Below, piece after piece: positions 9,187-35,323 of a stretch of DNA of 64,000 bases (positions within the stretch are counted from its first letter, which is position 1; every line of letters begins with the position of its first letter). The notes under the pieces were generated by a model. The model had not been told where the DNA came from. It searched no databases and saw only the letters and a program-made list of their open reading frames with translations. The stretch is from Streptobacillus ratti (GTDB taxonomy: Bacteria > Fusobacteriota > Fusobacteriia > Fusobacteriales > Leptotrichiaceae), in the NCBI RefSeq assembly GCF_001891165.1, contig NZ_LKKW01000001.1, positions 1-64,000 of the forward strand, given 5' to 3'. Both the position numbers and the translations under genes were made by a program.

Positions 9187-10029
9187 ATGAAAAACGATAA
9201 AATAACTGGTTCTGATAATAATATTAACCTTATTTCTTTATATATTTCAGATTTACAAAATCATGAATTATTGACATCAGAAGAAGAAGTTGAATTATTT
9301 AAAAGAGTTAGAGAAGAAAATGATGAACAAGCTAAACATTTATTAATCTTATCAAATTTAAGATTAGTTGTATCTGAGGCAAAAAAACTTTTAGGTAATG
9401 GCTTACCTTTAATTGATTTAATTAGCGAGGGGAATTTAGGATTAATAAAATCAATAGATAAATTTGACTATACTAAGGGATTAAGATTTAGTACTTATGC
9501 AGTATGGTGGATTAAACAAACAATAAAAAAATCTATAGTTAATTTAGGTAGAGATATTAGAATACCTTCATATAAATATGAGCAATTATCTAAAGTAAAT
9601 AAGGTTATTGAGAGTTACCAAAATGAGTTTGGAGATATTCCATCTGCTGAATATATTGCTGAAGTTTTAGGTATGAAACCTTCTAAAGTAGTATTATTAC
9701 AAAATGAATTTCAAGAAATAATATCATTAAATGATGCTATAGGAGATAATATTTTTTTAGAAGATGTTATAGGACAAAGTGATAATGTAGAAGATGATAT
9801 TATTAGAAATGATCAATTAGCTGAAATGTATAGTTTATTTGAAAAGACTTTAAATCCAAGAGAAAGAGAAATATTAGAGTTGAGATATGGTTTATCTAAT
9901 AATAAAATACATACATTAAAAGAAATAGGGGAAAAGTTAAGTATAACTAGAGAAAGAGTAAGACAAATAGAGAAAAAAGCAATAACAAAATTAAAGAAAA
10001 ATTTAGAAGAATATAAATACATGTATTAA
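9187..10029 (+). CDS. RNA polymerase sigma factor, sigma-70 (RpoD/SigA) family
   Basis: About 280 residues with sigma regions 1.2 (LISLYISDLQNHELLTSEEE), 2 (NLRLVVSEAKK, LIDLISEGNLGLIKSIDKFD, LRFSTYAVWWIKQTIKK), 3 and 4 (LNPREREILELRYGL; helix-turn-helix ITRERVRQIEKKAITKLKK). There is no region 1.1 and no acidic spacer, so it is shorter than a classical RpoD. It could be a compact primary factor or a group 2 factor. GAGG at 9178-9181 favours ATG 9187 over GTG 9181. It sits between gpsA and dnaN and is probably cotranscribed with both. Confidence 0.9.
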   Translation: MKNDKITGSDNNINLISLYISDLQNHELLTSEEEVELFKRVREENDEQAKHLLILSNLRLVVSEAKKLLGNGLPLIDLISEGNLGLIKSIDKFDYTKGLRFSTYAVWWIKQTIKKSIVNLGRDIRIPSYKYEQLSKVNKVIESYQNEFGDIPSAEYIAEVLGMKPSKVVLLQNEFQEIISLNDAIGDNIFLEDVIGQSDNVEDDIIRNDQLAEMYSLFEKTLNPREREILELRYGLSNNKIHTLKEIGEKLSITRERVRQIEKKAITKLKKNLEEYKYMY

Positions 10030-10044
10030 GAAGGAGAGTAGTTT

Positions 10045-11160
10045 ATGTTAAATATTAGACTTAATAGAAAAGAATTTCTAAAGAAAATACAAATTGTTGA
10101 AAATGCAATTGTTGATGATAAAGCTAATGGAATAAATTCAGGTATTTTTATAGAAACACTTGAGGATAAATTACTTTTAAAAGCAATGGGAGAGGGATTA
10201 TACATTAAAGCTGAAATGCCTTGTGAAATTATAGAAAAAGGTGAGTTTATAATAAAGCATAAATTAATGGAAGAATTTTTAAAACAATTAGATCAAGAAA
10301 TAATTGAGATAAAAGAAGTTAATGGTAAAATATCTATAATTTCTGGTAAAAGTAGTTCAGAGTTCTCTATTTATGAATATGAGAAAAGAAACGAACCATA
10401 TATTACAAATGGTTTAGAATTTTCATTTAAAAGAGAAGAATTATTTAATGATTTAGAAAGAGTTAAATTTGCAGCCTATTTAAATGTAGATAGATTAGCA
10501 GTTAATTGTATTAGATTTGAAATAGATAACAATGGTTTAAAATTTGTTTCATCTGATGCACATAGATTAATATTTTTAAATAAAGAATTTGAAGAAAAAG
10601 CAAATATTGAAACTTTAAGTATAAGTATACCTTTAAGATCTGTTAATAGTTTAAGTAAAATATTGAAAGTTATGGAAGATGAAGTATTAACATTTAAATC
10701 TGAGGGCACAAGAATATTATTTAAATTTAAAGATGTTGAAATATTAACAAAATTAGTTGAAATGCAATATCCAGATTATAAGACACTATTAAATTCTGTG
10801 AGAAATAATAAGAAAGCATTGTTAAATACTAAAGATTTAATAAGTATTTTGAGAAGAGTTTCTGTATTTGTTAAAGATAATAATGATAAAAAAGATATTG
10901 CTATATTCAAATTTAATGATAATCAATTAGAAGTAGTAGGAAGTAATGATTTAGCAGTTTCAAAGGAAAAAATTAATTGTATTTATGAGGGAGATACTTT
11001 AAAAATAGCCTTAAATGTTAAATATATACTTGATTATTTATTAACAATATCTGAAGCTCCTGTAGTTGAAATGAAAATGTTTGATGAAAGAACACCTGTA
11101 TTGATAAATGTTGAAAATAATTCTGAAAGCATATATTTAGTTGCACCTACACAAGTATAA
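10045..11160 (+). CDS. dnaN: DNA polymerase III beta sliding clamp
   Basis: 371 residues, the usual length, with three repeated clamp domains. Recognisable stretches include FKREELFNDLERVKFAA, LKFVSSDAHRLIFLNKE, VEMQYPDYKTLL and the C-terminal VAPTQV. It encircles DNA and tethers polymerase III and other clamp-binding proteins. RBS AAGGAGAG. It is not next to dnaA or recF here, so the usual origin-proximal dnaA-dnaN arrangement is not present in this window. Confidence 0.93.
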   Translation: MLNIRLNRKEFLKKIQIVENAIVDDKANGINSGIFIETLEDKLLLKAMGEGLYIKAEMPCEIIEKGEFIIKHKLMEEFLKQLDQEIIEIKEVNGKISIISGKSSSEFSIYEYEKRNEPYITNGLEFSFKREELFNDLERVKFAAYLNVDRLAVNCIRFEIDNNGLKFVSSDAHRLIFLNKEFEEKANIETLSISIPLRSVNSLSKILKVMEDEVLTFKSEGTRILFKFKDVEILTKLVEMQYPDYKTLLNSVRNNKKALLNTKDLISILRRVSVFVKDNNDKKDIAIFKFNDNQLEVVGSNDLAVSKEKINCIYEGDTLKIALNVKYILDYLLTISEAPVVEMKMFDERTPVLINVENNSESIYLVAPTQV

Positions 11161-11173
11161 AATAAAAATAAAT

Positions 11174-11217
11174 AAAAAAGGTAAAATTAATACAAAATAC
11201 TTAATTTTACCTTTTTA
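11174..11217. terminator. Bidirectional terminator after dnaN
   Basis: AAAAAGGTAAAATTAA (from 11175) pairs with TTAATTTTACCTTTTT (to 11216) over a 10-base loop, with A and T tracts on either side. It lies between convergent genes. Confidence 0.8.
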
Positions 11218-11225
11218 TATTTCAA

Positions 11226-11699
11226 CTATAATTCTATTTCATTATTTTCAGTTTTAATTTCAGAAATTTCTTCTTTGTTAAACATAAATTTTTTAAATTC
11301 AAATAAAACTACTATAAAAGATCCTAGAGTTCCTAAAAATAATACTATCCATCCCCAAGAGTATGAATAACTTACATTAAGTAATTTTATTGCAAAATTT
11401 TGACTTAATATTTTTTTAAGTTCAGTTCTTAGTATTAAAGAAACAGCTATTACTAAAATCATATTTAATGTAACAAAAACAATAGAGAATTTTTTTTGTA
11501 AATTATCTGATAAATAAAATGAATAAAGTGATAGAGCTACAATAATAAATGCTAGAATTGTTGCTTTTAAACCTAGATTTATAAGTCCTACTGTAAAATA
11601 TCTAGCATCAAATCCAATAGGTTTTATTGTAAACTTTAATAATGGTAATAATGCACCAAGAGATGTGATAATTCCTAAATTTTTTTTAATATTTTTCAT
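11226..11699 (-). CDS. Integral membrane protein of unknown function
   Basis: 157 residues with about three to four hydrophobic helices (near 8-26, 38-64, 72-92 and 113-135) and a short acidic cytosolic tail (EEISEIKTENNEIEL). I recognise no family motif. It lies 15 bases downstream of the HAD phosphatase gene, with RBS AAAGGAG, and is probably cotranscribed with it. Function is unknown; a lineage-specific envelope protein is the simplest reading. Confidence 0.6.
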   Translation of the reverse strand: MKNIKKNLGIITSLGALLPLLKFTIKPIGFDARYFTVGLINLGLKATILAFIIVALSLYSFYLSDNLQKKFSIVFVTLNMILVIAVSLILRTELKKILSQNFAIKLLNVSYSYSWGWIVLFLGTLGSFIVVLFEFKKFMFNKEEISEIKTENNEIEL

Positions 11700-11714
11700 A
11701 ATACTCCTTTCAAA

Positions 11715-12440
11715 TTACATAAATTCAACATCAGAATTTAAAATATAAACCATGTCTTTTCTTTCAACAACGATTTTTATTTTATCTTTAATATTTTTAT
11801 CATCTAATATTTTCTTGAATAATCTTTTTGCAGGATTTATTGCAACAGGATTACCTACCATTTCAAACATTCCAAAATCTCCTGTTGTATCTCCATAAGC
11901 ATAAGAATTTTCTAAATCTATATTATATTTTTTCTCAAAATTTTTTATAGCATTTATTTTACTTTTACTATCCCACATAGGTATATTTTTACCATTATAT
12001 TTATTGTTTTCATCAAGTAAATATTCAGTTGCTATAAAATCTGTTGCATTTAATTTTTTAGCCATTTTATCAACTAAAAATGATGGTGAACCAGAAATTA
12101 TGATTACTAAATGTCCTTTTTCCAAATGTTCTTTTATCTTATTTCTTGAATAAGCATACAGTTTCTGAGCCCTATTTTCTATAACTCTTTGAGCTACATA
12201 CTCAATATCTTTTTTATCGACATTTTTTATACATTCCATGTATATATCAACTAATTCTTCAAGATAATCATCGTAACTTCCTTTTCTTTCTTCCCACATT
12301 TTAAACTTGTGTTTTATTTCTCCGAAAAAACTACCCTCATCAATAAACTCAAATCTAATTAACATTTTAAAATGTTCTATTAGTAAAGAATTTCTAAATA
12401 TGGTACCATCAACATCAAAAAAAGCTGCAATTTTTTTCAT
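11715..12440 (-). CDS. HAD-superfamily hydrolase, subfamily IB (SerB-like phosphatase)
   Basis: 242 residues starting MKKIAAFFDVDGTIF, where the first Asp pair of motif I is visible. Motif II Ser/Thr lies in VIIISGSPSFLV and motif III/IV is YAYGDTTGDFGMFEMVG. HAD-IB members are phosphoserine-phosphatase-like or act on lipid/nucleoside phosphates, and substrate is not assignable. Although the frame is open 25 codons further upstream, the ATG at 12440 has AGGGTGA in front and gives the conserved N-terminus, so it is the start. Transcribed from a clear minus-strand promoter at 12468-12496. Confidence 0.85.
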   Translation of the reverse strand: MKKIAAFFDVDGTIFRNSLLIEHFKMLIRFEFIDEGSFFGEIKHKFKMWEERKGSYDDYLEELVDIYMECIKNVDKKDIEYVAQRVIENRAQKLYAYSRNKIKEHLEKGHLVIIISGSPSFLVDKMAKKLNATDFIATEYLLDENNKYNGKNIPMWDSKSKINAIKNFEKKYNIDLENSYAYGDTTGDFGMFEMVGNPVAINPAKRLFKKILDDKNIKDKIKIVVERKDMVYILNSDVEFM

Positions 12441-16367: not shown

Positions 16368-17081
16368 ATGGAAAAATATATAGTTGATGTTGCAGGTATG
16401 AAAATTGAGCAAATAAAAGGTTTACAATCTTTTACACTTGATTCCATGCTGATTGCTGATTACGTAAATATAAATAGAAAATCTAAAAAAATTCTTGAAA
16501 TAGGTTCAGGATTTGGGATAATTTCTATGTTACTTAGAAAAAAGACATTGGCTGAAATTATAGGTGTTGAGATTAATAAAGAAGCATATAATATATCAGT
16601 AGAAAATTTAAAAAATAATGATATAGATAATGTTTTTTTTATAAATGAAAACATTTTAAATTATAGAAAATTTTTATCTGAACAAACATATGATATCATA
16701 GTATCTAATCCACCGTATTTTACTCATAAAGATGAAAATCAATTGAAAGAAAACCTAAATTTAAGAAATGCAAGAGTTGAAAATACTTTAAGTATAAAAG
16801 ATATATTAAATATTTCAATTTATTTGTTGAAAAGTAATGCGAGTCTTTATTTAATTTTTAGAACAGAAAGACTTGCAGAAATAATAGGGTTATTAAAAGA
16901 TACTTGTCTTGAAATTAAAAGAGTTAAACCTATATATACTAAAGTTGATGATGATAAAGCATTAATCTGTATGGTAGAAATAGTTAAAGGGGCTAAAAGT
17001 GGTTTTGTATTAGAAAAACCGATATATGTATATGAAAATGATGGTGAAAGAAGTGAATATATTGAAAGACTATATAAATAA
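16368..17081 (+). CDS. trmN6: tRNA1(Val) (adenine-37-N6)-methyltransferase-like protein
   Basis: 237 residues of the YfiC/TrmN6 family. It has the family N-terminal QSFTLDSMLIADYV, SAM motif I ILEIGSGFGIISMLL, the acidic loop GVEINKEAYNIS, and the N6-adenine catalytic motif IVSNPPYF. It would methylate A37 (or a related base) of tRNA or another RNA. RBS TAAGGAG. The 3' end overlaps the uppS coding region by about 40 bases. Confidence 0.85.
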   Translation: MEKYIVDVAGMKIEQIKGLQSFTLDSMLIADYVNINRKSKKILEIGSGFGIISMLLRKKTLAEIIGVEINKEAYNISVENLKNNDIDNVFFINENILNYRKFLSEQTYDIIVSNPPYFTHKDENQLKENLNLRNARVENTLSIKDILNISIYLLKSNASLYLIFRTERLAEIIGLLKDTCLEIKRVKPIYTKVDDDKALICMVEIVKGAKSGFVLEKPIYVYENDGERSEYIERLYK

Positions 17082-18683: not shown

Positions 18684-20084
18684 ATGAATAAAAATTTTAT
18701 AGTAGAAGTGTATTTTAAAGATGATATAGAAATTAAGGATATTAGATATAATGAAATTCATAATTTCGTAGATAGTAACTGTAAAATTATAAAAAAAGAT
18801 TATATTTTTTATGAAAATGTTAAATTAGAATATTATAATCCATTTAAATTATATTCATATGTTAAATATGAGGTTATGAACTTTGATAAAAATATAAATA
18901 CACAACTTGGTTTATTTTATGAAATAAAATTAGTAAAATTTAGGACAAAAGTAAGTAATGAAGAAACAAACAATATAAATGTTTCTATAGAGCAAATAAA
19001 TAATATAATAGAAAAAATTGATGATATTTATTTTATAAGAAAAGATTTGAATAAATTTACTAAATATATAGATGATAAAAAGAAAAATGACTTCTTAAAA
19101 GAATTAAAATTATTATCTACCTTAAAATATGATTTAAAACGTGAAACATTCTCTTTAAGAATAATAGATATAAAAAGAGAAATGTATTCAATAGAAAAAA
19201 TAATTAAAGAATATATTTCTTTATTAGGGTTAAATATAAAATTTAATATTAATCATAATGATATTAAAATAGATAAAACAATGTTTGATAAAATTAAAGA
19301 AGCGTTAATTGATGTGTTACACAATTCAGTTTTATCATTTTTTGAAACTAAAAATTCAAATATTAATGATGAGGAAAATTATACACTAGAGTTAAATTTG
19401 AAACAAAAAAAATATAATTTAATTATTGAAATAGTTGAAAAAGGAAATAAGGTAGATATTAATAGTATATATAATAATGCTATAAAAGCAAATATATTAA
19501 ATAGCAATGAAACATACAGTGAAAAGGATATATTATTAAGTATATTAAACAAAAACTATATTAATGCCTTAGAAGATTTAGAAGAAAAAGAAAAAATAAT
19601 GAATTTTATTAAGATAAATAATGTTATAGAAGAATTAGATGGAAAAGTTGAAATATCACATGTTGATGATGTTATGAAATTTAATATTAACATACCATTT
19701 AAAATATTATTTATTAATGGTTTTGTTTTTAGTGAAATGAATAAAACTTATGTTATAAATACTGAATACATAGTGGATTCTTTTGATTTTGATAATAAAA
19801 ATGTAAGTAATTTGAATGGATATAATTATTATATGTATAAAAATAATAATATAGAATATATTAAATTACCAATAGAAATTGAAGAAAAAGATAGATTAGG
19901 TTTATTGATTAAAACAAATAATAAATACACTATAGTAGATGTGAATAAAAAACATTATTTTGAAGATATATTCTTTAATAAAGATGAAAAATCAAAAATA
20001 TATATGGGAGAAGTTCTTTTAAAGTCAGTAAAAAAAGCTAAGATATTAAATTTAGAAAGCATAATAGATATGTTGAAAGGTTAA
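18684..20084 (+). CDS. Degenerate CheA-like protein (dimerisation, ATPase-like and CheW-like regions)
   Basis: 466 residues. Alignment by eye to CheA is good from about residue 100. A long helical pair (100-180) contains TFSLRIIDIKREMYSIEKII, like the CheA P3 helix (SVMRIRMVPI...). Next comes LGLNIKFNINHNDIKIDKTM and the N-box-like EALIDVLHNSVLSFFE, a shaky G1 equivalent (residues 250-272), and DGKVEISHVDDVMKFNINIPF at 319-339. A CheW-like beta region runs to the end. The glycine motifs (DDGRGID, GRGVGMDVV) are lost and no phospho-acceptor His domain is seen, so a catalytic kinase is unlikely. It may be a signalling scaffold or pseudokinase. It lies 9 bases after cdsA and is followed at once by its likely partner. 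Confidence 0.55.
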   Translation: MNKNFIVEVYFKDDIEIKDIRYNEIHNFVDSNCKIIKKDYIFYENVKLEYYNPFKLYSYVKYEVMNFDKNINTQLGLFYEIKLVKFRTKVSNEETNNINVSIEQINNIIEKIDDIYFIRKDLNKFTKYIDDKKKNDFLKELKLLSTLKYDLKRETFSLRIIDIKREMYSIEKIIKEYISLLGLNIKFNINHNDIKIDKTMFDKIKEALIDVLHNSVLSFFETKNSNINDEENYTLELNLKQKKYNLIIEIVEKGNKVDINSIYNNAIKANILNSNETYSEKDILLSILNKNYINALEDLEEKEKIMNFIKINNVIEELDGKVEISHVDDVMKFNINIPFKILFINGFVFSEMNKTYVINTEYIVDSFDFDNKNVSNLNGYNYYMYKNNNIEYIKLPIEIEEKDRLGLLIKTNNKYTIVDVNKKHYFEDIFFNKDEKSKIYMGEVLLKSVKKAKILNLESIIDMLKG

Positions 20085-20085
20085 T

Positions 20086-21147
20086 ATGGAAATAAAATAT
20101 GTAAGAGAAATTTTAGAAAAAATTAATCAAGTAGAAAAAATATTACTTCAGATTCAAACTCCAAGAGAAGAAGAATTTATATATTTCACTAAAATTATTA
20201 ATGAAATTGAAAATAATATATATTTTTTAAGAAATAATGAAGATATTAGTATAGTTTCTACATTAAAAAAGATTTTTGTTTATATAGAAAGATATCCTTA
20301 TCAGTTTTTTATATTTAAATATTTAATTTTTGAAACATTATTAAATTTTGAATCATTATATAGCCTTTATAATACTAATGATATAGATAGAATAAGAGAT
20401 TTAAGAGATAAATTAAATATAAATATACTTAACTTAAAAAAGGAATTTGAAATAATAAATAAAAATAAAGATTATTATTATATCAATTTTACATTAGATA
20501 AGAGTGTGCCTTATTTTTATCTTTCAAGGCGTAATATTTTATCAAGGTTAAGAGAATATGGTAAACCATATAATTATATTCCAATTTCTTTAGATGATGA
20601 TAGATATACATATTTTATATTAGATTTTAAAGTAGAAAATAATATAGATGTTTCATTGTTGCTTGAAGAAATTAAAAATGATGATGATGGTATACTTGAT
20701 TATAAATTTAATAAACTTGAAAATGATAAAAATATATATAATGTAAAATTGTATTTAGATGAATTAGATGATAAAGTATATACAGATATAATAAAAAAGT
20801 TTAATAAAGAAATTTTACTTGATATTATATCTTATGAAAACATGTATGATATTTATGTATATGCTAAAAATCAATTAGAAGTACTTAATATTATTAATTC
20901 TATTAATAACGAAAAGGTATATTTTGTGTTGTCTAAAAATGTTAATAATAGAGAAACTAAAGGGATAGCATTAAATGGAATTAATGTGAATAATGTAGAG
21001 AAAATTAGAAAATTAATTTCTATTACAATGCTTGATAAAAAAATTGTAGATATAATTTATCGTGATTTTGTAGATTTTGTTGGAAAACAATTTTTAGAAT
21101 ATTTAAAAGAAAATTATAATATAGAAAATGGGGAATACATAGTTTAA
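20086..21147 (+). CDS. Unknown protein, possibly the P1/P2-like partner of the CheA-like protein
   Basis: 353 residues, no signal peptide or membrane helix. An N-terminal helical region (about 1-125) is arranged like an HPt bundle but has no HxxKG histidine. A mixed alpha/beta segment (about 130-185; [20 protein letters not shown]) recalls the CheA P2 fold. The C-terminal third ends with a helix [17 protein letters not shown] that could be CheC/CheX-like, though this is weak. It begins two bases after the stop of the preceding gene, so a complex of the two products is likely. Family assignment is tentative and function unknown. Confidence 0.4.
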
Positions 21148-27660: not shown

Positions 27661-29460
27661 ATGAAGAATTATAAATCATTATTTAACACAGTATTATTTA
27701 TTGCATTTTTGACAACAGAAAGTATTTTTGCTAATAGACAGACTACAAATTCAATGCCAAAGGGATTAAAAAATCAAAATGGTATGGATTATGAAGTAGC
27801 ATTAACATATTATGGAATAGGGCATGATAATAGGGAAAGTATTAGTATAGGTTCTAAAAAAGAACATAGTGAAGAATACTCAATATCAATTGGAAATGAA
27901 AATTCAAGTGAAGGATATGGTTCAATATCACAAGGATATAAATTGAAATCTGATGGATATGCTTCTATATCACTGGGTTATGAAGCAGAGGCTAGAGCAA
28001 ATCATTCAATAGCACATGGACATAAAGCCCAAGCTGATGGAGGAGTTTCAATATCAATAGGAAGACATTCAAAAGCGAAACAAGCATATTCAATATCAAT
28101 AGGAGATGAGGCACAAGCAACTTTAGAAAATTCAGTAGCTATAGGTTCTGGAAGTATAACAAAAAATGCAATAAACACAAGTGAAGTTATAGTTGAAAAT
28201 ATAAAATACAATGGATTTGCGGGCATAAGACCTAATTCAGTAGTGTCTATAGGTAAAAGTGGACAAGAAAGGCAATTACAATATGTATCAGCTGGACAAA
28301 TAAGTACTACATCAACAGATGCAGTTAATGGTTCACAACTTTATTCAACAAATAAGGTTTTGGGAGATTTTGCAAATTCAGTTAAAAATGTTTTTGGTTC
28401 AAGTTCAAATTTAGATACAAATGCTAAAATTACCATTACAAATATTGGTGGAACTAATAAAAATACTGTACATGATGCAATAAAAGAAATTTTTGATAAA
28501 AACAAAGAAACAAGTGAAAAATTAGAAAAATTATCTAAAAATACTTTATCTATTAGTGGAGATACTGGAACTACAGAAAAACAAGAATTAAATAAATCTG
28601 ATGGACTTAGTTTCAAGATTAAAGGCTCAGAATATATTAGAACTAAAGCAAGTGGAAATGAAGTTAGTGTAGATTTATCAGATAAGATTAAAAAAGATAT
28701 AGGAAAAGGAGTTATTGCAAATAGTGGAGTAGCAAATGCAGTAGCAATGGCAAATTTATCACAAGTAAGTGGAAATAATCATAATATTGTAGGTTCATAT
28801 GGTTACTTTAATGGAGATCATGCTTTTGCATTAGGATTTTCAGGCTCAAATGATATAGTAAATTTAGTATATAGAGCAAGTGGAGCATTAAATACTAAAG
28901 GATATTTATCAGTTGGAGCAGGAATAGGTTATCAGTTTGGAAGTTATAGTAGTAATGTAAAAGATACAGATACTATTATGAATAGTTATTCAGAAAAATT
29001 AAATTATTTAAATGATTTATTAAATGAACAAAACCATAAATTTAATACACAAAACAGTAATTTATGTAAAGAAATTGAAGATCTTAATCAAAAACTAAAA
29101 AATATTAAAGTAAATGAAGATGACTTATATATATTAAATGGATATAATTTAGGAGTATCAGAGCTGACAAGCTCACAAATAGATAGACTTAAAAATATAG
29201 TAGAAGATCTAAATACTAATTGTAAGAATAGAAAGATATACATAACTGGGTATACAGATAATGTTTCAAATGAAAGAATAAATCTTGAGCTAGGTTTGAA
29301 AAGAGCTAAAAAGGTTGCTAAAAAATTAGTAGAATTAGGATTAGATATGAGTATATCTATAAGAAAAGTAAGTTCATCAGGATATAATAATATTATAGAA
29401 ACAAATAAAAATTCAAATGGAAGATATTTGAATAGAAGAGTAGAAATTGAATTAAGATAG
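27661..29460 (+). CDS. YadA-type trimeric autotransporter adhesin with C-terminal OmpA-like domain
   Basis: 599 residues. A signal peptide (about 1-24, ending at an IFANR-type site) precedes a head made of short YadA-head repeats of the form SISIG/SISLG (about 60-190). A neck motif (STDAVNGSQLYSTN, about 220) and a coiled-coil stalk follow. The YadA membrane anchor (GVANAVAMANLSQ to AGIGYQFGSYSSN, about 358-430) is next. Then, unusually, come a coiled coil (about 440-485) and an OmpA/MotB-like peptidoglycan-binding domain (about 490-599; ITGYTDNVSNERINLELGLKRAKKV, NRRVEIELR). In ordinary trimeric adhesins the barrel ends the protein. The extra domain would be periplasmic and tie the adhesin to the wall. 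Confidence 0.85.
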   Translation: MKNYKSLFNTVLFIAFLTTESIFANRQTTNSMPKGLKNQNGMDYEVALTYYGIGHDNRESISIGSKKEHSEEYSISIGNENSSEGYGSISQGYKLKSDGYASISLGYEAEARANHSIAHGHKAQADGGVSISIGRHSKAKQAYSISIGDEAQATLENSVAIGSGSITKNAINTSEVIVENIKYNGFAGIRPNSVVSIGKSGQERQLQYVSAGQISTTSTDAVNGSQLYSTNKVLGDFANSVKNVFGSSSNLDTNAKITITNIGGTNKNTVHDAIKEIFDKNKETSEKLEKLSKNTLSISGDTGTTEKQELNKSDGLSFKIKGSEYIRTKASGNEVSVDLSDKIKKDIGKGVIANSGVANAVAMANLSQVSGNNHNIVGSYGYFNGDHAFALGFSGSNDIVNLVYRASGALNTKGYLSVGAGIGYQFGSYSSNVKDTDTIMNSYSEKLNYLNDLLNEQNHKFNTQNSNLCKEIEDLNQKLKNIKVNEDDLYILNGYNLGVSELTSSQIDRLKNIVEDLNTNCKNRKIYITGYTDNVSNERINLELGLKRAKKVAKKLVELGLDMSISIRKVSSSGYNNIIETNKNSNGRYLNRRVEIELR

Positions 29461-31137: not shown

Positions 31138-31167
31138 AATGTACCAATTTATGGTACATTTTTTTGT
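31138..31167 (+). terminator. Terminator between trmB and the contractile-system cluster
   Basis: AATGTACCA pairs with TGGTACATT over a 5-base loop and is followed by TTTTTGTTTT. It isolates the downstream cluster from trmB transcription. Confidence 0.85.
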
Positions 31168-31199: not shown

Positions 31200-31228
31200 T
31201 TGACATTAAAATTAAAAAATTATATAAT
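31200..31228 (+). promoter_or_regulatory. Strong promoter of the contractile-system cluster
   Basis: Perfect TTGACA (31200-31205) and perfect TATAAT (31223-31228) with exactly 17-base spacing. It is one of only a few consensus promoters in the window. About 70 bases of leader follow, including AAGGAGG at 31247-31252 and a second SD before the sheath gene. Confidence 0.85.
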
Positions 31229-31300: not shown

Positions 31301-33433
31301 TTGGAGGTTATAAAACAAACAAATCGTGCATTACTGTTTGAGAAATTTAATGATGAAGTTTATGATATATTAACTTTAATAGGTGATGTTGAAAATATTA
31401 GTAGTTTAGATGATGAAAAAATTCAAGAAATAAATAAGTATTTATTAGTTTTTAATGAATTTTTAGAAAAATTTGAACCAAAAATTTATTCTTATATGGA
31501 TGTTGAAAATAAAAGAATAGGATATACACTTACAAAAAATGAGAATATTCCTGATTCAATGTATACAACAATATATATTAATAATGAAAATACTTTTATT
31601 AGAATGTTATCAACATTGATTGAAAATAGAAAAAATCTTGATAAGAAAAATGTTGATTTTCAATTTGAAGATATATTGGAATTAATATCACCAAGAAAAG
31701 TAATAGAAAATATAAAACAACAGAGAAAAGAAATTAATTATTTATTTGCAAAATATGAAGCATTAAGTGATAAAAGTCCTAAAAAACTGGATGTTGGTGA
31801 TTTACTTAACTATAAGTTTCAAGAAGCATCAAAAAATTATAATAATATTTTGGCAATGTTACCACTGGCGATAGAAGATATAAAAACTAGACTTGAAATA
31901 GGAGAAAATAAAGAAAATATAAATATTGAAGAAATTAAATTAGGTTATTTAGAATTTTCAGATGGTGGAGAAATAGAGTTTATAGAAAATCAATTGGAAT
32001 TAGAAACTACAAAACTTTTACCTAATAATAGTCAAAAATTATTAGAGATATTTGAAGATGATTATTATGAAAGTGTTGAAAAACCAAATAATTATGTAGC
32101 TAATTTAATTAAGAGAACATATGTTCCTATAACAACAAATAATCTTAAAATCGATTTTGAAAAAGAGGTAAATAACTATAATCAATATTTAGAACTATAT
32201 AAAAATTCACAAGAAGATTTTATCAAAATAGCTAAAGAATTAATAGAAAAGGTTATGGGGGTTAAATTATTCTTTGATCAATATTCAGTAAATACTAAAA
32301 ATATGCTACCAAAATTAATCATTACTAATATTGATAATGAATTATTAATTCAAGCTAAGAACAGAGAAAAAATAGAAAAATATTTAACAACTGTTAATGA
32401 TAAAAATGAATTTGAAAATACTATATGGTTTTCTATTTTTCCTAATATATCTTTAAAAGATGATTTCAAAAAAACTAATAAGAATATATTTAGTGGAAAT
32501 AGTGATGTTAAATCAAAGAAAGTAAATACTATACAAGATTTAACAAATTTAATGGAAATACTTTATAAGCATAAAGTTCAAACTTTTATTAGTTTTGAAA
32601 GAAATAATGAAAATACTTTTGAAAATCTTGCTATACATGGAATTAATAAATATGTTGAAAAAACACAACCTTTAGAAAATAGTAAATTTTCAGAATATGT
32701 TATACCAGTTTTACCAAACTTAACTTTAATACCAAAGGATAAATCTGGTATTAAAATTGATAAAAGAGCTATAATAAATGAAGCTGGAGTATTTTTTAAT
32801 GATGAGGATAGTTTAGAATTTTTCTTAGATGGGATATATATAGATGGTGCATATATAGCAGCTGGATTAGTTGCATCATATCAATGCCCTACCTATTTAA
32901 AGGAAAGATTTAAAAATGTATCTAATAATCCAGGTGTTAGATTTAATATAGAAGCAGAAGATAATTCATTAATAGTAAGAACAGTAATGGCACGTGAAAT
33001 TAGTGGATTTACGGTTGGAATAAAAGAAGAAATAAATAGTAAAAATTATGGATTTATTTTTGCATCAGAACAAGCACAAATAAAAAATGAAAAAGTAAAA
33101 AATATAACAGTATATAAAGCGAGAAGTTTATACAAAACAAGTAATAATAATTATGAAAGTATTTATAAAACTTTAACGACTACATATATAGAAAGATTAT
33201 TAAGATTTATGAGTAATGATTTTAAATCAGATAAATTAAATTATTTCTTTAGTAACAGTCCAAACAGTCAAAAAAGTATTTGGATAAAAGAATCTACAAC
33301 TGTAAATGCTATATTAAGACAAGGTGATGATATATCACATATAATAGATGAGCAAAATAATACTTGTCAATTGAATTTAGTATTCCTTGGAGAAGTTAAA
33401 AATCTTAAAATTGAAATAAATAAAACTAATTAA
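31301..33433 (+). CDS. Contractile sheath protein resembling a TssB-TssC fusion
   Basis: 710 residues. Residues about 18-155 parallel type VI TssB/VipA: a LIGDVENISSLDDEKIQEIN segment like the TssB GDFSG...RK region, followed by a FEDILELISPRKVIENI segment like its DDFSPDAV helix. From about 190 the protein looks like TssC/VipB: a VDGAYIAAGLVASYQCPTYLKE-like stretch (about 525-550) and a C-terminus with YIERLLRFMSNDF and a beta-rich end (LNLVFLGEVKNLKIEI). Separate TssB (about 170 aa) and TssC (about 490 aa) add up to about this length. Such subunits stack into a contractile sheath. TTG start with GGGGGAG six bases upstream. Assignment is by motif comparison only. Confidence 0.6.
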   Translation: MEVIKQTNRALLFEKFNDEVYDILTLIGDVENISSLDDEKIQEINKYLLVFNEFLEKFEPKIYSYMDVENKRIGYTLTKNENIPDSMYTTIYINNENTFIRMLSTLIENRKNLDKKNVDFQFEDILELISPRKVIENIKQQRKEINYLFAKYEALSDKSPKKLDVGDLLNYKFQEASKNYNNILAMLPLAIEDIKTRLEIGENKENINIEEIKLGYLEFSDGGEIEFIENQLELETTKLLPNNSQKLLEIFEDDYYESVEKPNNYVANLIKRTYVPITTNNLKIDFEKEVNNYNQYLELYKNSQEDFIKIAKELIEKVMGVKLFFDQYSVNTKNMLPKLIITNIDNELLIQAKNREKIEKYLTTVNDKNEFENTIWFSIFPNISLKDDFKKTNKNIFSGNSDVKSKKVNTIQDLTNLMEILYKHKVQTFISFERNNENTFENLAIHGINKYVEKTQPLENSKFSEYVIPVLPNLTLIPKDKSGIKIDKRAIINEAGVFFNDEDSLEFFLDGIYIDGAYIAAGLVASYQCPTYLKERFKNVSNNPGVRFNIEAEDNSLIVRTVMAREISGFTVGIKEEINSKNYGFIFASEQAQIKNEKVKNITVYKARSLYKTSNNNYESIYKTLTTTYIERLLRFMSNDFKSDKLNYFFSNSPNSQKSIWIKESTTVNAILRQGDDISHIIDEQNNTCQLNLVFLGEVKNLKIEINKTN

Positions 33434-33447
33434 AGTTGGAGGAGTTA

Positions 33448-33879
33448 ATGGGATTTAAATTAAATTTAAAAGGAAATAGCGAAGAATTTACAATAGAACA
33501 AGAAAATATTGTAAGTGTAAAATTTTTATCAGATACAAATGATAGTTCTAATGCAAGATCTACAGATTTAAGCATTGGACTTGAAATAGAGGGTAAGATA
33601 ATACCTAGTATAGGTCAAAATGATATTGAAGATCCAACAAGAAAGCTCTTGCTTTGGTCTTTAGTTAGTGCAGAAGATTTAGAGGCATATAAAAATGTAA
33701 CACTTGAAGTAATTTTAGCTGGAAATGTAGTTAGAAAAATAAATTTAACAAATGCGTTTTTAATTGACTATAATGAATATTTTGATGAAAAAAATGGTAA
33801 CGGAACTTTTTTAGTTAAAATTAAACAAAAAAAGGAAAAAATAAAAGAAATAGTTATTGAGGGTGGTTATCAAAAATAA
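33448..33879 (+). CDS. Hcp/tail-tube-like protein
   Basis: 143 residues, all-beta. The size and strand pattern (EEFTIEQENIVSVKFLSD, STDLSIGLEIEGKI, NVTLEVILAGNVVRKINLTNAF, GTFLVKIKQKKEKIKEIVIEGGY) fit the Hcp/tail-tube fold, and the gene follows directly after the sheath gene, as tube follows sheath in phage and T6SS loci. ATG 33448 follows GGAGGAG (33438-33444). The upstream in-frame TTG at 33436 would put the SD inside the gene. It would form the rigid tube expelled on contraction, if the cluster is a contractile machine. Confidence 0.55.
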   Translation: MGFKLNLKGNSEEFTIEQENIVSVKFLSDTNDSSNARSTDLSIGLEIEGKIIPSIGQNDIEDPTRKLLLWSLVSAEDLEAYKNVTLEVILAGNVVRKINLTNAFLIDYNEYFDEKNGNGTFLVKIKQKKEKIKEIVIEGGYQK

Positions 33880-33888
33880 GGGGGTTAA

Positions 33889-34635
33889 ATGTTAGAAAAT
33901 GAATATATAATACCAAAATTTTCTAGTAGAACCGTATTAAGAAGTGCAGATTTATTTACTATAAATCAAAATATAAGCAGTGCTAGTTTTTTAAAATATA
34001 TAGACTATGAAGAAGGAATAATTCTAGGGTTACATCCAACAACTGATGGAGAAAAGATATTTATAGATAAGGGTATATATAAATTTGATAATGAAGTAAT
34101 ATTCTTATCTGAAAAAATTTCTATTGATGTACCTAATGATGAGGGGGAATTTATAGTATATATAATGACAGAAGATTATGAAGAAGAATACACTAAAAAT
34201 AAAAGAATTTATTTAAAAATAAGTAGAAGTGAAGAAAAAGATTCTATAGAAGTTGTAAGATTTAATTTAAGAAAAGGTGCAACTTTGAAAAATTATGACT
34301 ATGAATTGAAGAAGTTTTCAAAAGAGTATAATTCCTTAAATATTAATGAAGTTAAATATTCTAAAACGGGTATTAATCCAAAATTACTTAAAATATGGTC
34401 TAAAAAAATGATGGCTTTGAAACTTAATGAAAGTATGGATCTATGGATATCATCTTTATGTAATATAGAAACAATTAATATTGAAGTATTAAAAAAATAT
34501 ATTTTTACAAAGCTTAAATTTTATAAAGAAAAAATGACTAATACGGAAATATTAATTAAACTATATGAAATACTAAATATATTGACAGAATCTAGTGAAG
34601 AATTTGATTTTGATAAAAAAGTAGAAGTAGAGTAA
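33889..34635 (+). CDS. Unknown cluster protein, candidate baseplate (TssK-like) component
   Basis: 248 residues. The N-terminal 140 are beta-rich (IIPKFSSRTVLRSADLF, EEGIILGLHPTTDGEKIFIDKGIY). The last 100 are helical (LKIWSKKMMALKL..., TEILIKLYEILNIL). That beta-shell plus helical arrangement and its place after sheath and tube recall TssK, but it is half the usual 440 residues and no motif is decisive. RBS GGGGG. A structural or chaperone role in assembling the tube/baseplate is the best guess. Confidence 0.35.
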   Translation: MLENEYIIPKFSSRTVLRSADLFTINQNISSASFLKYIDYEEGIILGLHPTTDGEKIFIDKGIYKFDNEVIFLSEKISIDVPNDEGEFIVYIMTEDYEEEYTKNKRIYLKISRSEEKDSIEVVRFNLRKGATLKNYDYELKKFSKEYNSLNINEVKYSKTGINPKLLKIWSKKMMALKLNESMDLWISSLCNIETINIEVLKKYIFTKLKFYKEKMTNTEILIKLYEILNILTESSEEFDFDKKVEVE

Positions 34636-34636
34636 T

Positions 34637-35323
34637 ATGAAAAAATTGTTTACTAGATTTAAAGTGAAGTTATTTAAATATATTATGTCAAATTCAAAGA
34701 TTTATGGTAAAGTTAAATTTCAAAAAATTAATTCATACACACAATATATGATATTTTTGATTATTTTAATAATAATCTCTATTATATTTATATCAATTAA
34801 ATTTTCATACAAAACATTACTTATTCTATATTCATTACTTAATGTATATATACTGTATTTTTTTCTTTTTTATTATCCTTATGAAAGAAAAAGAAATATT
34901 AGATATATAAATAAGATTTTACAAGAGAAAAAAGAAGAATATATAAAAGAATTAAATGAAGAAAAAATGAAATTAAATATAGATAATATAAAATTACTTA
35001 CACTTAAAGATGATTTTGATTATGATATATATTCGTGGGATATTAGAAATAAAGCTTCAATAGTAATAGGTAAAAAAACTGAAAAAATTTCTGAGATAGA
35101 TATTGATTTATCAGCTCATGAATATTCCCATTTAGTAAGTAGAATTCATGGTGTATTAAATAAGGTTAATGAAATATGGTATTATGAAGATTTAGGTTCT
35201 AAAAATGGTAGTGGAATAGAGAGAAAAAATAAAATAAAGGAAAAATTAGTACCAAATAAATCATATTTAATTGAGTCAGGAGATATTATATATATTGGTG
35301 TGATAAAGATATTGGTTAATTAA
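34637..35323 (+). CDS. Membrane protein with C-terminal FHA domain
   Basis: 228 residues. Two adjacent hydrophobic helices (about 36-55 and 58-78) are followed by a short charged helical linker. An FHA domain lies at about 135-228 (SAHEYSHLVSRIHGVLN; YYEDLGSKNGSG; GDIIYIGVIKILVN). The S..H and N-GS-G type residues that bind phosphothreonine are present (SRIH, SKNGS). It is encoded one base after the preceding gene. It would place a phosphothreonine reader at the inner membrane beside the kinase encoded downstream, as Fha/TagH does in type VI systems. Confidence 0.72.
   Translation: MKKLFTRFKVKLFKYIMSNSKIYGKVKFQKINSYTQYMIFLIILIIISIIFISIKFSYKTLLILYSLLNVYILYFFLFYYPYERKRNIRYINKILQEKKEEYIKELNEEKMKLNIDNIKLLTLKDDFDYDIYSWDIRNKASIVIGKKTEKISEIDIDLSAHEYSHLVSRIHGVLNKVNEIWYYEDLGSKNGSGIERKNKIKEKLVPNKSYLIESGDIIYIGVIKILVN

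What the first reader, a model, noticed from the sequence alone, without database searches (positions are those of the whole stretch)
31301..33433. TssB and TssC apparently fused in one 710-residue chain
Residues about 18-155 line up by motif with TssB and the rest with TssC. Sheaths normally use two proteins that form a heterodimer. A single-chain version would make the stoichiometry fixed and could explain the absence of a separate TssB gene. The C-terminal strand order also resembles phage tail sheaths.
Basis: partly seen in the sequence, partly recalled or inferred. Interest (0 to 1): 0.7.

Follow-up and report, generated by a model that had tools for sequence, protein, structure and literature searches.

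The report
Single-chain contractile sheath, T6SS-like
The 710-residue protein is predicted to be the whole contractile sheath of a spring-loaded injection machine in one chain, where textbook type VI secretion uses two proteins, and the same unnamed machine is encoded by many oral and gut anaerobes, including Gram-positive ones.

Summary
The ORF at 31301-33433 is real, intact and under strong purifying selection. A deep-alignment AlphaFold2 model (pLDDT 83, pTM 0.84) matches contractile sheaths only: ranks 1-39 in the PDB re-alignment are all sheaths (Z 15.5-22.6), and the first non-sheath scores Z 7.5. Single-chain sheaths (phage, eCIS) align over residues 1-698. TssC chains align only over 285-698. 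No TssB gene was detected in this genome, in 59 relatives or in 13 Bacillota carriers, and the gene is one chain in every intact carrier. So the single-chain claim holds. That residues 7-155 are TssB-like rests on motif order and a marginal profile match. The TssC-like part starts near 285, not 155; the low-confidence stretch is 203-240, not 155-190. "Fusion" as an event is unproven, because phage and eCIS sheaths are single chains anyway. The larger point is the family: about 720 residues, unrecognised by Pfam, NCBIfam, PHROGs or PDB sequence search, in Fusobacteriota and Bacillota. Neighbours are Hcp, VgrG, DUF4280, FHA, PP2C, kinase, DnaJ and an Hsp70/actin-fold ATPase; no ClpV was found. 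It is probably an undescribed cell-anchored contractile injection system. In Streptobacillus the ATPase motifs are lost. New variant of a known kind.

The parts
31139..31165 (+). terminator-like hairpin plus T-run (ATGTACC-AATTTAT-GGTACAT-TTTTTT) separating the upstream methyltransferase gene
   Evidence: read directly from the sequence
31200..31228 (+). sigma-70-like promoter TTGACA-17 nt-TATAAT in front of the sheath gene
   Evidence: read directly from the sequence; not tested
31301..33433 (+). single-chain contractile sheath protein, 710 aa
   Evidence: ORF; homologues; model; fold matches
31301..31765 (+). residues 1-155: N-terminal strand plus TssB/VipA-like segment
   Evidence: single-chain sheaths align from residue 1-8 on; marginal profile match to TssB, residues 109-143 locally and 3-163 extended
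31766..32152 (+). residues 156-284: extra helical segment with low-confidence stretch 203-240
   Evidence: model; not covered by TssC chains, which start at 284-312
32153..33430 (+). residues 285-710: TssC/VipB-like part
   Evidence: TssC chains align over 284-699, 293-343 residues, Z 17.3-19.3
33436..33879 (+). Hcp/TssD-like inner tube protein, 147 aa
   Evidence: Pfam TssD E 0.0074; family profile to Hcp1 6bdc E 0.004; follows the sheath gene in 82 of 97 loci
33889..34635 (+). 248-aa conserved cluster protein, no known family (baseplate or adaptor candidate)
   Evidence: conserved in 25 loci, alignment; role is inference
34637..35323 (+). protein with hydrophobic N-terminal half and C-terminal FHA domain (membrane anchor candidate)
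   Evidence: Pfam FHA E 4.9e-8; hydrophobic stretch seen in sequence
35335..35844 (+). zinc-ribbon-like N-terminus plus FHA domain
   Evidence: Pfam FHA E 7.1e-6; CxxGH...CPYC in sequence
35844..37607 (+). 587-aa counterpart of the PP2C phosphatase protein of relatives; PP2C signature not detected here
   Evidence: PP2C_2 E 1.7e-11 in L033 relative; no PP2C hit in the window copy
37586..38272 (+). protein kinase
   Evidence: Pfam Pkinase E 4.8e-11
38259..40304 (+). 681-aa member of an actin/Hsp70-fold ATPase family; nucleotide-binding motifs lost in this genus
   Evidence: alignment: IDFGTSNTTAG and IDCGGGTTDL in most members, absent here; congeners lack GGGT too

Best explanation
The protein is the sole sheath subunit of a contractile injection system. 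One chain carries the N-terminal strand and TssB-like segment (about 1-155), an extra helical segment (156-284) and a TssC-like part (285-710), so one polypeptide does the work of a TssB-TssC heterodimer and the 1:1 ratio is built in. Inferred mechanism: subunits stack as a long sheath around an Hcp-like tube (33436-33879) tipped by VgrG and, in relatives, a DUF4280 PAAR-like tip. The cytoplasmic sheath is held at the membrane by hydrophobic/FHA proteins and set off through the kinase-FHA-phosphatase circuit. Contraction pushes the tube and cargo out. In most relatives spent sheath may be recycled by the clustered Hsp70/actin-fold ATPase with DnaJ, not by ClpV; Streptobacillus has lost these ATPase motifs. 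Shown here: ORF, conservation, selection, predicted fold, gene neighbours, no detectable TssB. Inferred: assembly, contraction, anchoring, triggering, recycling, function.
For: Model pLDDT 83, pTM 0.84 with 88 homologues. VIA-align ranks 1-39 are all contractile sheaths, Z 15.5-22.6, then 7.5; the same pattern came from an independent shallower model (ranks 1-22 sheaths, Z 10.3-13.6, then 6.5), whose best Foldseek hit was VipA-N2/VipB, E 1.9e-4. Single-chain sheaths span residues 1-8 to about 698, TssC chains only about 285-698. TssB-like order and marginal profile score. One chain in every intact carrier. No TssB. Hcp-like gene directly downstream in 82 of 97 loci, VgrG, DUF4280, FHA, PP2C and kinase neighbours. 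dN/dS 0.06-0.09.
Against: No sequence-level match to any sheath, TssB or TssC family. Foldseek with the better model gave no PDB hit under E 0.001, so the fold claim rests on the VIA re-alignment of Foldseek candidates. The VipA chain itself was not superposed. gp25/TssE and the E. coli TssA, E, F, G, H, J, K, L, M proteins find no counterpart, so the baseplate is unassigned. In this genus the ATPase and PP2C signatures are gone, so operation could differ from relatives.
Confidence: 0.82

Rival explanations
1. It is an unsplit phage-tail/eCIS-type sheath. The chain was never two genes, and the resemblance to TssB is only the shared sheath core.
For: The best structural matches are single-chain sheaths (cyanophage A-1(L) Z 22.6, Streptomyces CIS 22.1, PVC and Afp about 21.5). 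TssC chains score lower (Z 17-19). Profile evidence for TssB is marginal.
Against: TssC chains align over more residues of the C-terminal part (341-343 within 285-698) than single-chain sheaths do over the whole chain (about 300), including the helix 286-326 that matches the start of the TssC chains. The 284-residue lead before that point holds TssB-like motifs in TssB order.
Confidence: 0.35
2. The locus is a decaying remnant in Streptobacillus: conserved once, now non-functional.
For: ATPase motifs and PP2C signature lost, DnaJ gene missing from the cluster; VgrG in two ORFs; one relative has only a 34-residue remnant.
Against: Sheath and Hcp are intact in all four species with dN/dS 0.035-0.09. 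The VgrG split is shared by all four genomes, which argues against recent random damage.
Confidence: 0.12
3. It is part of a prophage or a tailocin.
For: Sheath, tube and hub are phage-derived parts.
Against: No relatives in 2.9 million viral contigs at the sensitivity used, no PHROGs match, kinase/FHA/hydrophobic proteins where capsid, terminase or tail-fibre genes would be.
Confidence: 0.02
4. The protein is not a sheath.
For: No sequence family match; Foldseek with the better model has no PDB hit under 0.001.
Against: 39 of 39 top re-aligned structures are sheaths, with a gap of 8 Z units to the next; Hcp-like gene adjacent.
Confidence: 0.02

Closest known systems
T6SS sheath TssB/TssC (VipA/VipB)
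   Same: TssC-like part at 285-698 (Z 17-19); TssB-like motif order in the N-terminal 155; neighbours Hcp, VgrG, FHA, kinase, PP2C
   Different: one chain; extra helical segment 156-284; no sequence match; no TssH/ClpV, TssE/F/G/K/L/M counterparts found
Single-chain sheaths of eCIS, phages and haloarchaeal CIS (PVC, Afp, Streptomyces CIS, H. borinquense Cis2)
   Same: one chain; align from the first strand to about residue 698, Z up to 22.6; haloarchaeal CIS works membrane-bound in T6SS mode (PMC11566945)
   Different: this family has a long 284-residue lead before the TssC-equivalent part; different neighbour genes; no Pfam or PHROGs phage-sheath match
Bacteroidales injection system (BIS)
   Same: gut-bacterial contractile system, some with a single sheath gene (PMC7394362)
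   Different: Bacteroidetes, gp25/gp27/gp6 baseplate; gp25 not detected here
DUF4280 PAAR-like proteins of Gram-positive bacteria
   Same: DUF4280 genes lie in relatives' clusters; PMC5349215 proposed in 2016 that Gram-positives might own a T6SS-like machine
   Different: that paper had no sheath; this family supplies a candidate one

Membership tests
contractile sheath protein | sheath core fold | tested here: met
contractile sheath protein | assembles into a contractile helical tube | not testable with these tools
   needs electron microscopy
T6SS (subtypes i-iii) | separate TssB and TssC genes | tested here: not met
   no PF05591 in own genome, relatives or Bacillota carriers; one chain
T6SS (subtypes i-iii) | Hcp tube and VgrG spike | tested here: met
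   Hcp-like; VgrG-like Phage_GPD/base_V; in own genome outside the window
T6SS (subtypes i-iii) | TssH/ClpV ATPase next to the cluster | tested here: not met
   E. coli W TssH finds nothing among 1815 ORFs of the sheath loci
T6SS (subtypes i-iii) | TssE/gp25, TssF, TssG, TssK baseplate | tested here: inconclusive
   gp25 not detected in 34 of 35 genomes, one sub-threshold hit; no phmmer match to E, F, G, K; distant versions may be missed
T6SS (subtypes i-iii) | membrane complex TssJLM or TssNQOPR | tested here: inconclusive
   no match to E. coli TssJ, L, M; Bacteroidota-type TssNQOPR not tested
eCIS / phage tail | single-chain sheath | tested here: met
eCIS / phage tail | Phage_sheath Pfam/PHROGs family | tested here: not met
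eCIS / phage tail | eCIS-type AAA ATPase, tape measure, tail fibre in the cluster | not tested
   none seen in Pfam scans of window and relative clusters, no dedicated search

The most novel reading that the evidence does not exclude
An undescribed class of cell-anchored contractile injection system shared by diderm Fusobacteriota and Negativicutes and by monoderm Clostridia. It has a one-chain TssB-TssC-like sheath, kinase-FHA-PP2C triggering, and recycling of spent sheath by a dedicated Hsp70-like ATPase with a J-protein in place of ClpV.
Probability: 0.4. Interest if true: 0.87.

Novelty: new variant of a known kind. Interest (0 to 1): 0.66.

Why it matters
In a 2016 survey T6SS-iii was restricted to Bacteroidetes and T6SS-ii to Francisella, and its authors expected further undescribed systems in other clades (PMC4793230). 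A sheath family spanning Fusobacteriota and Bacillota, many of them oral and gut anaerobes, would extend contractile protein injection to Gram-positive gut bacteria and answer the 2016 question of what Gram-positive DUF4280 tips belong to (PMC5349215). A TssC-like single-chain sheath makes the split-or-fusion question of sheath evolution testable, and an Hsp70/DnaJ pair in the cluster would be a new way to reset such a machine.

Tried and rejected
Sequence searches of the sheath against Pfam, NCBIfam, PHROGs and PDB gave only chance-level hits. Foldseek with the better model failed in PDB and gave one hit under 0.001 in viral models, an uncharacterised Myoviridae protein. Profile alignment to TssC did not beat shuffled controls; global-mode alignment to TssB also failed. 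Prophage origin rejected. Looked for a hidden small TssB gene next to the sheath gene: only one related pair among nine candidates, 192-aa proteins that resemble the window's methyltransferase at 16368. PDB profile searches left the 422-aa and 229-aa cluster families unassigned. Literature searches found no description of this family; only open PMC text was searched, so a preprint or subscription paper may exist.

Full report
Observation. The window lies in a Streptobacillus-like genome: the nearest named relative is S. notomytis at 94% in this protein, and the genome held has 1.43 Mb. The ORF 31301-33433 is open for 710 codons from TTG, with a good ribosome-binding site, a consensus promoter at 31200-31228 and a hairpin with T-run at 31139-31165 upstream (read by eye). 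It starts a run of eight genes on one strand up to 40304.

Conservation. Full-length homologues occur in 28 of the 60 related genomes searched, own included, plus one 34-residue remnant, and in at least 79 genome contigs, mostly Bacillota: Lachnospiraceae, Clostridium, Halanaerobiales, Oscillospiraceae, Selenomonadaceae, Pelosinus and others. A second, more distant branch (about 22-28% identity to the window protein) appears in the class of genome G318, which also holds Pelosinus. In every intact carrier it is one chain of about 700-770 residues; the exceptions are assembly breaks or frameshifted copies. No relative was found in the viral collection. Within the genus dN/dS is 0.06-0.09 for the sheath and 0.035-0.07 for the Hcp-like protein.

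Fold. No sequence library recognises the protein. A first model from 28 homologues had pLDDT 65 and pTM 0.67; its only Foldseek hit below 0.001 was the VipA-N2/VipB sheath, and VIA-align put sheaths in ranks 1-22, Z 10.3-13.6, then 6.5. A second model from 88 homologues had pLDDT 83 and pTM 0.84. VIA-align then put sheaths in ranks 1-39, Z 15.5-22.6, with the first unrelated chain at 7.5. Foldseek itself listed no PDB hit below 0.001 for this model; VIA-align re-aligned its candidates, so this is a second look and not an independent search.

Anatomy. Single-chain sheaths (cyanophage A-1(L), Streptomyces CIS, PVC, Afp, pyocin, haloarchaeal CIS) align from residue 1-8 to about 698 with some 300 residues. 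TssC chains from five species align only from 284-312 to 697-699, with 293-343 residues. Residues 285-698 therefore correspond to TssC, and the first 284 hold what T6SS supplies through TssB plus an extra segment. The TssB resemblance in 7-155 is by motif order. hhalign against a TssB alignment of E. coli W, environmental plasmid homologues and PDB sequences places residues 109-143 on TssB 85-118, and the extended alignment is colinear over 3-163. The score ranks first or second against 100 controls in three local settings but not in global mode. The like test for TssC fails. The region 155-190 is predicted helical; the low-confidence stretch is 203-240.

No separate TssB. PF05591 finds nothing in the own genome, in 60 genomes including relatives, in 12 Bacillota carriers or in G318, while the control E. 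coli genome is found. The gene after the sheath is the Hcp-like gene in 82 of 97 loci, and no conserved small gene family of TssB size sits beside it.

Surroundings. The cluster is conserved: sheath, Hcp-like tube, 248-aa protein, DnaJ, hydrophobic/FHA protein, zinc-ribbon/FHA protein, PP2C protein, kinase, 681-938-aa ATPase, 422-aa and 229-aa proteins. The tube family matches Hcp1 at E 0.004 and Pfam TssD at up to 1.5e-4. VgrG-like proteins carry Phage_GPD and OB domains. DUF4280 PAAR-like proteins occur in relatives, one fused to an AHH nuclease directly upstream of the sheath, which points to toxin delivery. In this genome VgrG-like, 377-aa, 221-aa and a 1088-aa cargo-like gene lie at contig positions 97259-104128, outside the window. 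The large ATPase family shows the two phosphate motifs of the actin/Hsp70 superfamily, IDFGTSNTTAG and IDCGGGTTDL, in most members; the window copy and two other small-genome relatives lack them. E. coli W TssA, B, C, E, F, G, H, J, K, L, M find nothing among 1815 ORFs of these loci, and gp25 is not detected.

Interpretation. The sheath identity is strongly supported, the single chain is certain at gene level, and the TssB/TssC division is supported at fold level for TssC and weakly for TssB. Whether a fusion took place is open, since single-chain sheaths are normal in phages and eCIS and also in the membrane-bound haloarchaeal system (PMC11566945). Function as a cell-anchored injection machine is inferred from the neighbours. 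Recycling by Hsp70/DnaJ is a hypothesis drawn from gene content only; in Streptobacillus the ATPase and PP2C signatures and the DnaJ gene are gone, so this genus may run the machine once per assembly or rely on general chaperones.

Known or new. TXSScan (PMC4793230) limited T6SS-iii to Bacteroidetes and T6SS-ii to Francisella. Lays et al. (PMC5349215) suggested from DUF4280 that Gram-positives might have such a machine. BIS (PMC7394362) is a different, Bacteroidetes system. No paper in the searched library describes this sheath family; the library holds open PMC papers only.

Noticed in passing
own genome contig C1:99480-100043 and 100039-100845 (outside the window; L135): The VgrG-like hub is encoded as two ORFs (gp27-like half and OB half) in all four Streptobacillus genomes, so the split is shared and not a sequencing error; Halanaerobacter (L066) also seems to have two pieces.
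   Followed up: partly
38259-40304 and relatives: Loss of both nucleotide-binding motifs in the large ATPase of small-genome Leptotrichiaceae, while larger-genome relatives keep them.
   Followed up: partly
L141:7593-9377: DUF4280 PAAR-like domain fused to an AHH nuclease domain directly upstream of a distant sheath copy.
   Followed up: no
L032:3-7621: Tandem array of repeated pairs (about 210-230-aa protein and about 280-aa lipoprotein-like protein) downstream of a sheath-Hcp pair; looks like repeated immunity or cargo genes.
   Followed up: no
18684-20084 and 20086-21147: A CheA-like histidine-kinase remnant of 466 aa (NCBIfam CheA E 5e-15) followed by a 353-aa protein without family, amid housekeeping genes.
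   Followed up: no
27661-29460: 599-aa protein with SIxxG head-type repeats, as in trimeric autotransporter adhesins, and an OmpA-like C-terminal end (read from sequence).
   Followed up: no
L062:7052-9241 and 10001-12184: Acetivibrio alkalicellulosi carries two tandem sheath-Hcp pairs, one copy on a long branch.
   Followed up: no
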